Source: a virus
Strand: one strand, 5' to 3'
Virus record (IMG/VR): IMGVR_UViG_3300042889_000685
Location: 1 to 27,561 of that record
DNA length: 27,561 nt
Shown: positions 3,683 through 6,112 of the stretch, piece after piece
How positions within the stretch are numbered: the first letter of the stretch is position 1
Layout of the letters: the number at the start of each line of letters is the position of its first letter
The notes under the pieces: generated by a model
What the model saw: the letters and a program-made list of their open reading frames with translations, nothing else
Databases searched by the model: none
Told to the model about the DNA's origin: nothing
Made by a program: the position numbers and the translations under genes

Positions 3683-3874
3683 ATGACAAATCACGAAACA
3701 CTATTGGAACAATTTGAAGTATACAAGTCTGAGAACGAAAAGTTCACAGGCAAAGGTGTTAAGGCTGCTGCTGCCCGTGCTCGTAAGGCACTACAGGAAA
3801 TGTCCAAAGCGATCAAAGAACGCCGTAAAGAGATTACTGCTGAAAAAGAAGCACTAGCCGCTGCTCCAAAGTAA
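3683..3874 (+). CDS. Histone H1-like (Hc1-type) small basic protein
   Basis: 63 residues, helical, Lys/Arg/Ala-rich. The core FTGKGVKAAAARARKALQEM followed by KAIKERRKEI matches the Hc1 family consensus (K-G-N-K-A-A-G-T-R-A-R-K-A-L), first known from chlamydial nucleoid condensation proteins and common as single-domain proteins in T4-like phages of aquatic bacteria. It probably binds DNA non-specifically, perhaps in nucleoid remodelling or genome compaction; that role is inferred from the family. It starts 9 bp after gp46 behind a GGAA ribosome-binding site and its TAA is followed directly by the ATG of the next gene, so it is in the gp47-gp46 operon. Confidence 0.75.
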   Translation: MTNHETLLEQFEVYKSENEKFTGKGVKAAAARARKALQEMSKAIKERRKEITAEKEALAAAPK

Positions 3875-4303
3875 ATGGAATGGACCTATCAAGGTGCCAT
3901 TGTCGATACACTACCTGATGAATGCATTGGGTTTGTGTATCTCATTACTAATATCACCAATGGTAGAAAGTACGTTGGTAAAAAGTTGGCAAAGTTTGCT
4001 AAAACATCTGTGAAGACAGTAAAGCTAAAGAACGGCACCAAGAAGAAAAAGAAAATTAGATCCAAAGTGGACAGCGATTGGCGCGAGTACTATGGATCCA
4101 GTGAACATTTAACCAAAGACGTTGAACTATTAGGCAAGGACAACTTTAGCAGAGAGATACTACACTACTGCAACTCAAAAGCAGTGTGCTCGTATATTGA
4201 AGCAAAAGAACAGTTTGATAGAAAAGTACTCGAATCGCTAGACTACTACAATGGTCATATTAGCGTTAGGGTTCATGGCTCACATATTATTAATAAACTC
4301 TAA
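3875..4303 (+). CDS. SegE-like GIY-YIG domain protein (putative endonuclease)
   Basis: 142 residues. The N-terminal GIY-YIG element is degenerate: G19-F-V-Y22 stands for GIY and K32-Y-V-G35 for YIG, within GFVYLITNITNGRKYVGKK. The insertion of a very basic stretch (KLKNGTKKKKKIRSK) followed by DWREYYGSS and a later YIEAKEQF (Glu of the active site) is the arrangement of the SegE-type family in T4-like phages. Such proteins cut DNA or derive from homing endonucleases. No intron or separate DNA-binding domain is visible, so it is either a free-standing endonuclease or a domesticated nuclease working with the neighbouring gp46/47 pair. The ATG abuts the previous stop (TAAATG). Confidence 0.75.
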   Translation: MEWTYQGAIVDTLPDECIGFVYLITNITNGRKYVGKKLAKFAKTSVKTVKLKNGTKKKKKIRSKVDSDWREYYGSSEHLTKDVELLGKDNFSREILHYCNSKAVCSYIEAKEQFDRKVLESLDYYNGHISVRVHGSHIINKL

Positions 4304-4306
4304 AAA

Positions 4307-4892
4307 TAACACGAATGGCTGCTGAAAATGTAGCCACAATGATAATTACAACATAGCACTCATCTTAGACTAAACTGCTTAGTCCAGCAATCTGCGTTTA
4401 CCGCACACTCCTTAACACCACGTTAACCGCTAACTCCCCCAGACTCATTTACTACTGATAGGCTCGTGTCGCCGATATATGACACCCATAAAACCAGGCA
4501 CTAGGGTTGCGCTGGGGAAGGAACTTCTGTGCAGTAGCAGAGACTAAAACCACTATCCTTCACAGGACGTAGATCACTTGCTTGAAAAGATCTGGGTTTA
4601 GTATATGTAAAGCTAGAAAGAGTAGGCACTGCTGACAATTGCATCCTACATACTGTGTGCGTGAGTTCAACTAGATTCACATAGTAGCGTCATAATAAGA
4701 TGAGTGTAAAAGGGTACAGCGTGACCGCCCTAACTGGTAACAGTTGCTTTAGTTGAATGTGGCATTGGACTTCGGGTCAAAATGTTAATCTTAGTCCGTA
4801 AAGGGCTAAGTGTGACTGAAGCATCAGGTCAAGTATTCATCTTGTACTTCATTTAGTAAAACACATAACTTCTATCACAATAAATCGTGTTA
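4307..4892 (+). ncRNA. Candidate large structured RNA (GOLLD/ROOL-like or new class)
   Basis: The two ends are perfect reverse complements: TAACACGA (4307-4314) and TCGTGTTA (4885-4892), which would close a 586-nt RNA. Inside I can hand-fold: 4316-4322/4330-4336 (7 bp), 4368-4373/4379-4384 (6 bp), 4412-4416/4422-4426, 4466-4470/4481-4485, a three-way junction with outer helix 4543-4551/4594-4602 (one mismatch) enclosing 4556-4559/4564-4567 and 4571-4575/4589-4593, 4622-4626/4645-4649, 4651-4659/4678-4686 (9 bp), 4732-4736/4741-4745 with a GUAA tetraloop, 4763-4784 around UUCGG, 4790-4797/4803-4810 (8 bp) and 4831-4835/4845-4849. Three helices include a G-U pair only if the + strand is transcribed. 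No tRNA or tmRNA signatures were seen. Class assignment is inference; no promoter was identified. Confidence 0.55.
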
Positions 4893-4952
4893 ACTAAAAA
4901 AATTCTAGTTTATTAAAGTTGAATGAGTTAGAGCATAGCGATACGAAATTCA

Positions 4953-4971
4953 AGAGCGAAGCATTCGCTCT
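4953..4971. terminator. Strong hairpin between convergent units, possible leftward terminator
   Basis: AGAGCGAA, loop GCA, TTCGCTCT: an 8-bp perfect stem. On the minus strand it is followed by TTGAATTT, a weak T-rich tail, so it may end the leftward gp26/gp51-like transcript before it runs antisense into the candidate RNA. On the plus strand no T-run follows. It may alternatively be a 3' structural element of the RNA locus. Confidence 0.35.
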
Positions 4972-5000
4972 ACCAAGATAATATAAATGCATATCAATGA

Positions 5001-5222
5001 CTATGAGCGAGCAAACCCTTTTTTGCCGTACATTGCTTCTGTTCTTTCCTTGATAGTCTCACTGAGAATAGTTCTTTCAATATATGTCATGTCCCAGATT
5101 TCTGCTGGGCTAATTGCGCCCCAAATACTCAACATTGATACTTCTTTGATTAAGGCTCTTGATTCTGTTTCGATGTTGTCAACGAAGCGTTTAATTTTTG
5201 CCCCGTTAGTCCCGAGTGTCAA
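5001..5222 (-). CDS. Small baseplate-associated protein, possibly gp51-like
   Basis: 73 residues, mostly helical: MTLGTNGAKIKRFVDNIETE, then SMLSIWGAISPAEIWDMTYI followed by ERTILSETIKERTEAMYGKK. The W-G-x-I-S-x-x-E-I pattern before a charged helix resembles short tail/hub assembly factors. In T4, gene 51 (hub assembly catalyst) follows gene 26, and this gene follows the gp26-like gene in the same direction, so position suggests the same role; the sequence similarity is not strong enough for me to name it. The start is TTG within the gp26 stop (TTGA), the same coupling used by gp47/gp46; no ATG is available upstream without deep overlap. Overlapping plus-strand frames are shadows. Confidence 0.6.
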   Translation of the reverse strand: MTLGTNGAKIKRFVDNIETESRALIKEVSMLSIWGAISPAEIWDMTYIERTILSETIKERTEAMYGKKGFARS

Positions 5223-6112
5223 GAGCCTGCGCCGAAAAAACTTGTAGGATCAAATAACATGTCTGATGTATAAGGTTTATTGCAGAACTCACAGGTGACG
5301 TGCAGTGTTCTGGTAATACCAAATTCACTAAACCTTTTAATTTCAACGTCAAGTCTCTCGTTGCTGGCCCGATCTAAATTCTTAATCCACTCGCGAATGT
5401 GGTTGGTGTCAGTGACAACTATACCATCTGGCAATATAACTGACGTAATACTTTCTGCCAATACATCTTGACTCAATGCAATCAGCTGATTATAGCCTTT
5501 GTTAGCAACATCTGCTTTCTGTTCTAACGTTGCATCTTCTCGTGATTCAACACCTTGCATTTGACGCATCGTATCAAATTGTACACGCAACAATTTGCTT
5601 TGTGCAGCCAGTGTGTACGGTTTTAATATTACGTTAACACCATTGCTCAATGTAACATTGCCAATGTCTTCAGCAATTGGTTTCATTGTGCCAAGTACGC
5701 TGCCTAAACCCACAGTAACTCGTTGACTTCTGCCTTCGCTTTCGGTACAGTTATGATTGATTTCCAAATCCATATCGTCGCCATAACTGGTCATTCTCAT
5801 TGCAACTAAAATTGTGTCAATGTCCGGGGACGGGATTTCATTGACATCTTTAATGTCTGGGCACACTGAAGTAAGCACTTGTTTAAGAGCTTCACCATTG
5901 AGTAATGCGTCGGGATTTTTTAAGATAAGTTCGTCTTTGGCAGTCATTGGGTATACTGCTAATTCATTTGTATCAGATAACTTGGGTGTATTTTTATAAT
6001 AACGGCCGCCACTTGGCAACGTAATGTATGTTCCTGGTTTTCGGTAATATTGAAAGAGCGGGTTTGCTGCAACCTGTTTAATAGGTTTGTTTAGAGGGTT
6101 TGAGTTATCCAT
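5219..6112 (-). CDS. 26: Baseplate hub subunit, gp26-like (T4 baseplate protein family)
   Basis: 297 residues, longer than T4 gp26 (about 208). The N-terminal pattern NPLFQYYRKPGTYITLPSGG, then RYY, AVYPMTAKDELILKNPDALL, N-G-E-A and a cluster of SVCPDI is characteristic of the T4-like baseplate protein family that includes gp26, a component of the central hub of the baseplate. The C-terminus carries a C274-x-x-C277 pair (CEFCNKPY), maybe half of a metal site with C-containing NHNC in the middle. It is transcribed leftward from the control region at 6113-6205 and is coupled to the small downstream gene by a TTGA overlap. Confidence 0.8.
   Translation of the reverse strand: MDNSNPLNKPIKQVAANPLFQYYRKPGTYITLPSGGRYYKNTPKLSDTNELAVYPMTAKDELILKNPDALLNGEALKQVLTSVCPDIKDVNEIPSPDIDTILVAMRMTSYGDDMDLEINHNCTESEGRSQRVTVGLGSVLGTMKPIAEDIGNVTLSNGVNVILKPYTLAAQSKLLRVQFDTMRQMQGVESREDATLEQKADVANKGYNQLIALSQDVLAESITSVILPDGIVVTDTNHIREWIKNLDRASNERLDVEIKRFSEFGITRTLHVTCEFCNKPYTSDMLFDPTSFFGAGS

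What the first reader, a model, noticed from the sequence alone, without database searches (positions are those of the whole stretch)
4307..4892. 586-nt candidate ornate non-coding RNA in a T4-like phage
A gene-free convergent gap is packed with local helices, including 9-bp (4651-4659/4678-4686) and 8-bp (4790-4797/4803-4810) stems, a GUAA-capped hairpin (4732-4745) and a three-way junction (4543-4602). The outer ends form a perfect 8-bp helix (TAACACGA/TCGTGTTA). Three helices (4316-4336, 4651-4686, 4790-4810) contain a G-U pair that would be an A-C mismatch on the other strand, which points to + strand transcription. Size, phage setting and lack of coding fit the large ornate RNA classes GOLLD and ROOL, known from phages and able to form multimers, but I cannot match any class motif, so it may be new.
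Basis: partly seen in the sequence, partly recalled or inferred. Interest (0 to 1): 0.85.

Follow-up and report, generated by a model that had tools for sequence, protein, structure and literature searches.

The report
Large T4-phage RNA with locked repeats
The gap holds a real structured RNA of roughly 400-530 bases, of which only a 141-base piece was in the databases; it recurs in over 150 uncultured T4-like phage contigs and in integrated elements of freshwater bacteria, and it carries two 7-base copies of a sequence that differs from phage to phage yet changes in step in both copies.

Summary
The gap contains a real + strand structured RNA, but not the 586-nt molecule proposed. Rfam RF01718 (Polynucleobacter-1, 141 nt) matches 4461-4602 at 91 bits. 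Comparison with about 178 homologous loci shows that this family is only part of a longer RNA: conserved core about 4449-4836, plus a 3' domain to about 4971. The proposed outer helix (4307-4314/4885-4892) and the 4316-4336 hairpin are absent from all 16 close relatives checked.

In T4-like phages the RNA directly follows a small SegE-type GIY-YIG nuclease gene (68 of 76 loci; a PD-(D/E)XK nuclease in 4). In Polynucleobacter and a Nitrospira MAG it sits in integrative elements, behind a T4-late-promoter-like motif (20 of 20).

A tree-based covariation test gives ten significant pairs, nine of them canonical. The striking part is a 7-nt direct repeat (R1/R2) flanking the 3' hairpin. It differs between phages but changes to the same base in both copies on the same branch 44 times (null mean 2.75, maximum 10). 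No complementary partner was found in cis.

I infer a trans-acting RNA that presents one element-specific recognition sequence twice to the same partner; the partner is unknown. No GOLLD, ROOL, intron, tmRNA or HEARO match was found.

The parts
4449..4836 (+). Conserved core of the RNA (begins CACTACTGATAGGC-like, ends with repeat R2)
   Evidence: BLAST and nhmmer homology in about 178 loci; covariation
4461..4602 (+). Rfam RF01718 Polynucleobacter-1 portion (5' pseudoknot-like stem, hairpins, three-way junction)
   Evidence: cmscan 91.4 bits, E 1.3e-18, gathering score 37
4466..4485 (+). Hairpin stem 4466-4470/4481-4485; the four inner pairs are significant by covariation
   Evidence: pairs 4467-4470/4481-4484, E 0.008 each, 97-99% canonical
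4651..4686 (+).
   Evidence: fold; pairs near 4653-4656/4679-4683 keep pairing through changes, below the strict threshold
4691..4749 (+). Crossing (pseudoknot-like) helices 4691-4693/4721-4723 and 4704-4706/4747-4749, with pair 4712/4730, around the conserved ACAGC...ACCGCC block
   Evidence: covariation; only 4691/4723 and 4712/4730 pass the strict null
4775..4780 (+). R1, first copy of the element-specific repeat (GGUCAA)
   Evidence: identity covariation with R2
4790..4810 (+). 8-bp hairpin between R1 and R2
   Evidence: fold; 4793/4807 covaries
4827..4832 (+). R2, second copy of the repeat (GGUCAA)
4917..4971 (+). 3' domain: stem with GAGC-loop-GCGA apex, then a terminal hairpin GAGCGAA/UUCGCUC
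   Evidence: same layout in almost all phage loci and in the bacterial copies; 4955/4967 significant
3875..4303 (+). SegE-type GIY-YIG nuclease gene that directly precedes the RNA (142 aa)
   Evidence: PF19835 E 9.8e-33; adjacent in 68 of 76 loci; 71 of 76 in the reciprocal search
5219..6112 (-). Convergent T4 baseplate-type (hub) gene on the other side of the RNA
   Evidence: PF12322 E 1.5e-12; phrog_150

Best explanation
The gap encodes a structured, trans-acting RNA of about 400-530 nt, of which RF01718 is the 5' part. In T4-like phages it is probably transcribed together with, or just after, the small GIY-YIG nuclease gene; in bacterial integrative elements it is probably made from a T4-late-like promoter, hence during T4-like phage infection. 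A conserved fold, including crossing helices, holds two similar 3' modules (GUGU..-GAA-YYY-R), each ending in the same 7-nt sequence R. The RNA most likely works by contacting one element-specific partner through R twice, the partner being a nucleic-acid site or a dimeric co-evolving protein. Shown: the RNA's existence as a conserved structured unit, its extent, its contexts, and the lockstep evolution of R1 and R2. Inferred: transcription mode, action in trans, and recognition through R. Unknown: the partner and the downstream effect.
For: RF01718 match. About 178 homologous loci, most full-length. The core is far more conserved than the flanking genes. A profile trained almost only on phages finds the bacterial copies over most of their length at E 4e-28 to 3e-14, with one weaker. 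Tree-based null: 10 significant pairs, 9 canonical. R1/R2 identity 81% in register against 17-44% in other registers; 44 same-branch same-base co-changes against 2.75 expected, maximum 10 in 2000 simulations. No column complementary to R inside the RNA; no excess of complementary R within 1.5 kb or in the whole loci. The bases just before R keep a fixed difference (CUC against UCU) in most sequences while R stays identical, which argues against gene conversion. Two elements in one genome carry different R (L393 and L394), so R is element-specific rather than host-specific. The first downstream ORF is on the opposite strand in 42 of 76 loci, which argues against a 5' leader. T4-late-like TAAATAA motif in front of the RNA in 20 of 20 bacterial copies.
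Against: No transcript has been seen. The partner of R was not found. Single-sequence folds do not make R1 and R2 especially unpaired (0.44 and 0.47 against a mean of 0.40). About 30% of the aligned sequences do not have perfect R identity in the alignment register used (28 of 91). The identity pairs are not among the ten that pass the all-against-all threshold; they were tested as a specific hypothesis after being noticed. The RNA can be absent at the same locus (L457), so it is not essential to every phage of the group.
Confidence: 0.45

Rival explanations
1. It is a cis-acting untranslated region: a 3' UTR of the nuclease operon or a 5' leader that controls the next gene, as the 2010 description assumed (table entry cis-reg 'y').
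For: Very short spacing to the nuclease stop codon, median 17 nt; in bacteria a variable gene often follows within about 40 nt; PMC2864571 lists it as probably cis-regulatory.
Against: The next ORF is on the opposite strand in 42 of 76 phage loci; the neighbouring genes differ completely between phages and bacteria; the size and the lockstep repeats are unusual for a leader.
Confidence: 0.17
2. The conserved unit acts as DNA: a recombination site or replication origin in which R1 and R2 are binding or crossover cores, transcribed only incidentally.
For: 7-nt identity with variable sequence is what a crossover core would show; the bacterial elements encode two tyrosine recombinases; repeat spacing varies.
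Against: Base-pair covariation with crossing helices needs a single strand; T4-like phages with the RNA show no recombinase gene next to it; own R is not enriched elsewhere in the loci.
Confidence: 0.12
3. An ornate scaffold RNA like GOLLD or ROOL that assembles into multimers, with no sequence-specific target.
For: Similar size, phage and integrative-element setting, elaborate fold.
Against: No Rfam match to those classes; the variable lockstep repeat suggests specific recognition rather than a fixed scaffold.
Confidence: 0.12
4. Nuclease and RNA travel together as a homing cassette; the RNA is passenger or target of the nuclease.
For: Adjacent nuclease in 72 of 76 phage loci (68 GIY-YIG, 4 PD-(D/E)XK); RNA-less locus L457.
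Against: Bacterial elements carry the RNA without any such nuclease; four close nuclease relatives lie elsewhere without the RNA; none of 9 isolate phages sampled with SegE relatives has it.
Confidence: 0.07

Closest known systems
Polynucleobacter-1 RNA (Rfam RF01718, Weinberg et al. 2010, PMC2864571)
   Same: Positions 4461-4602 match its full 141-nt model, 91 bits; its bacterial members carry the same longer RNA.
   Different: The model covers roughly a third of the conserved RNA; T4-like phage members, the 3' modules, the R1/R2 repeat and the 3' domain are not in it. The 2010 table describes it as Burkholderiales and fresh water/estuary, probably cis-regulatory.
GOLLD and ROOL RNAs
   Same: Large, elaborately folded RNAs known from phages and prophages; similar size range.
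   Different: No covariance-model match; no multimer evidence; lockstep repeat not known to me from them.
Guide RNAs next to nucleases or recombinases (HEARO/omega RNA of IscB and TnpB, IS110 bridge RNA)
   Same: RNA encoded against a small nuclease or recombinase gene; short variable segments; in bridge RNAs two guides share a core (own knowledge).
   Different: No match to HEARO; R is only 7 nt and both copies have the same sense; neighbours change between contexts; no target found.

Membership tests
Polynucleobacter-1 RNA (RF01718) | Covariance-model score above the gathering threshold (37 bits) | tested here: met
   91.4 bits over model positions 1-141; homologues L002-L004 at 87-92 bits
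Polynucleobacter-1 RNA (RF01718) | Helices kept by compensatory changes | tested here: met
   4467-4470/4481-4484 and 4496/4513 significant
GOLLD | Match to the Rfam GOLLD model | tested here: not met
   No match to E 5 in 4200-5000, none at gathering score in the window
ROOL | Match to the Rfam ROOL model | tested here: not met
GOLLD / ROOL-like ornate RNA | Forms homo-oligomeric RNA complexes | not testable with these tools
   needs native gel or cryo-EM
Group I/II intron, tmRNA, HEARO | Match to the family models | tested here: not met
   No Rfam match to E 5; ARAGORN finds no tRNA or tmRNA
RNA-guided nuclease or recombinase guide RNA | Guide segment complementary to a target sequence | tested here: inconclusive
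   No cis target for R in loci of up to about 19 kb; whole phage genomes and hosts not searched
RNA-guided nuclease or recombinase guide RNA | Obligate association with one nuclease or recombinase family | tested here: not met
   GIY-YIG, PD-(D/E)XK and tyrosine recombinase contexts

The most novel reading that the evidence does not exclude
The RNA is a guide component that lends sequence recognition to small nucleases or recombinases that look like bare catalytic domains (142-aa GIY-YIG, 172-aa PD-(D/E)XK, 188-aa tyrosine recombinase), with R1 and R2 as two identical guides for one element-specific site. It would then be a module shared between T4-like phages and their integrated satellites.
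Probability: 0.08. Interest if true: 0.95.

Novelty: new variant of a known kind. Interest (0 to 1): 0.74.

Why it matters
It turns an almost unstudied 141-nt Rfam entry into a widespread large phage RNA with defined ends, contexts and a testable recognition sequence. Two copies of a variable 7-mer that evolve in step inside one structured RNA would, as far as I know, be new, and they give a direct genetic test (change one copy, then both). The same RNA in T4-like phages and in integrative elements with a clamp-loader-like gene and T4-late-like promoters points to an unrecognised phage-satellite relationship in freshwater bacteria.

Tried and rejected
Outer helix and 5' hairpin as part of the RNA: absent in 16 of 16 relatives. 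Group I intron resemblance of GCAGAGACUA: no Rfam support and not kept in bacterial copies. Cis pairing partner for R: none in the RNA, none within 1.5 kb, none in whole loci. R as attachment core of the bacterial elements: direct repeats spanning the RNA gave only palindromes and chance repeats. Translational-bypass idea (R followed by UAA/UGA in one clade): fails in the other clades. A tool alignment of 24 sequences (A1) was too divergent in the middle to count helices in window register, so covariation was measured on a 91-sequence alignment instead. The exact-pattern scan of bacterial genomes gave chance hits except L101. DUF6641 relatives were not found in viral contigs. Literature searches found nothing on RF01718 function, DUF6641 or such satellites; subscription papers are mostly not held and no bioRxiv preprints are searchable as such. 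In one search five proteins of the bacterial elements had no PHROGs match.

Full report
What was checked. The window is a T4-like phage contig: SbcD and SbcC homologues, a SegE-type GIY-YIG gene, a T4 baseplate-type gene, portal and head protease. Between the GIY-YIG stop at 4303 and 4986 there is no ORF of 60 aa or more on either strand. The + strand folds slightly better than shuffles, the - strand does not. Energy alone would not make the case.

Identity. Rfam gives one match in the whole window: RF01718 Polynucleobacter-1 at 4461-4602 +, 91.4 bits against a threshold of 37. Nothing else passes, and with permissive settings no GOLLD, ROOL, intron, tmRNA or HEARO match appears up to E = 5.

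Extent. Three close relatives already show that the conserved block is about three times the Rfam model: 4432-4865 is 94% identical in L002 while the flanking genes are about 77-85% identical. Iterated profile searches of the contigs fetched by DNA patterns reach 178 loci, 151 of them over at least 330 of 372 positions. The core starts around 4449 and ends with R2 around 4836. A further 3' domain, a stem with a GAGC-loop-GCGA apex plus a terminal hairpin, recurs downstream in almost all loci and in bacteria; in the window it ends near 4971.

Structure. On 91 sequences (73 phage, 18 bacterial) I used a null in which each column's inferred substitutions are placed at random on the tree. Ten column pairs reach E <= 0.05 and nine are canonical base pairs: 4456/4533, 4467-4470/4481-4484, 4496/4513, 4691/4723, 4712/4730, 4955/4967. 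Helices 4691-4693/4721-4723 and 4704-4706/4747-4749 cross, so a pseudoknot is likely; the second of these is below the strict threshold. The test was written here and is only R-scape-like.

The repeat. The strongest unexpected signal in the first covariation table was identity, not complementarity, between columns 4768-4780 and 4821-4832. It is a direct repeat of about 7 nt, R1 and R2, 47-76 nt apart, flanking the 3' hairpin. Examples are GGAUAAU, AGAUGAA, GCAUAAU, GGUCAAG, GUGUCAAG, AGCGAAA. In the tested register identity is 81% against 17-44% in neighbouring registers; 63 of 91 sequences have all seven bases identical, with 15 different sequences among them. On the tree, R1 and R2 change to the same base on the same branch 44 times; 2000 simulations give a mean of 2.75 and a maximum of 10. 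The bases immediately before R stay CUC at R1 and UCU at R2 in most sequences, so gene conversion across the repeat is unlikely. No column of the RNA is complementary to R, and own R or its complement is not enriched nearby or in the whole loci. Two elements in the same bacterial genome can have different R (L393 AGCGAAA, L394 AGAGAAA), so the partner is not simply a host RNA. In the window itself the shared part is six bases, GGUCAA at 4775-4780 and 4827-4832.

Context in phages. In 76 dereplicated loci (75 viral contigs and L101 from a Nitrospira MAG) the first upstream gene is the GIY-YIG nuclease in 68, a PD-(D/E)XK nuclease (PF24608) in 4, another gene in 3, and off the contig in 1; the median gap from stop codon to RNA is 17 nt. 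In the reciprocal search, 71 of 76 informative contigs with close GIY-YIG relatives carry the RNA behind it; four lack it at another locus, and L457 lacks it at what looks like the same locus. SegE relatives occur in 387 isolate phages; in the nine regions examined there is no RNA, and direct searches of isolate phages with four different members find none. The first downstream ORF is on the opposite strand in 42 of 76.

Context in bacteria. RF01718 was found above the cut-off in 13 of 151 genomes of the genus of G471, with 17 copies, in 3 of 399 Burkholderiales, in one of 98 genomes of the Nitrospira MAG's class, namely that MAG, and in none of 399 across the phylum of G101. All 20 copies examined have a DUF6641 gene on one side; most have on the other side variable genes, a 188-212-aa tyrosine recombinase, two unknown genes, a clamp-loader-like AAA gene (phrog_168) and a full integrase. 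All 20 have a TAAATAA motif just upstream of the RNA, resembling the T4 late promoter TATAAATA. I read these as integrative elements that respond to T4-like phages, perhaps satellites; that is inference.

Mechanism. What is shown is a conserved, structured, non-coding unit with two lockstep recognition sequences. The most economical reading is a trans-acting RNA that contacts one variable partner twice. What the partner is, and what follows from contact, is not known. The observation that the neighbouring enzymes are small and look like bare catalytic domains suggests a guide role, but SegE proteins of the same size exist widely without the RNA, so I give this 8%.

Novelty. A fragment is known (RF01718). 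The full-length RNA, its T4-like phage members, the repeat and the bacterial element are not described in the papers I could search.

Noticed in passing
L369 12445-13104; L372 12034-12747 and the other bacterial loci L390-L405: Integrative elements with DUF6641, a short tyrosine recombinase, a T4-type clamp-loader-like AAA gene, a full integrase and T4-late-like promoter motifs; possibly unrecognised satellites of T4-like phages.
   Followed up: partly
L394, L372, L400 (upstream small gene, family b7): Small proteins beginning MKVKEVTNPEEQL / MRISEIANAEEQV, recalling T4 capsid-targeting N-termini; no PHROGs match for the one tested.
   Followed up: partly
L266, L270, L321, L247, L275 downstream of the RNA: Variable genes beginning MKIYEIISEE / MNIKELISEQ, close behind ATAAATA-type motifs, that look like injected internal head proteins.
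   Followed up: no
L236, L301, L303, L227 between SbcC and the GIY-YIG gene: Radical-SAM-like genes inserted in a variable spot upstream of the nuclease (judged by eye from the sequences).
   Followed up: no
L398, L400, L401, L402, L369 (bacterial loci): Several copies of palindromes TGTCGTTTTAAACGACA or GTCCTTTTAAAGGACA within the loci, possibly operator sites.
   Followed up: no
L457: GIY-YIG gene followed directly by what looks like the small - strand gene and hub gene, with no RNA between: a natural RNA-less comparison.
   Followed up: partly
window 3683-3874: 63-aa protein matching Histone H1-like Hc1 (PF07432, E 7e-14) just before the nuclease gene.
   Followed up: no
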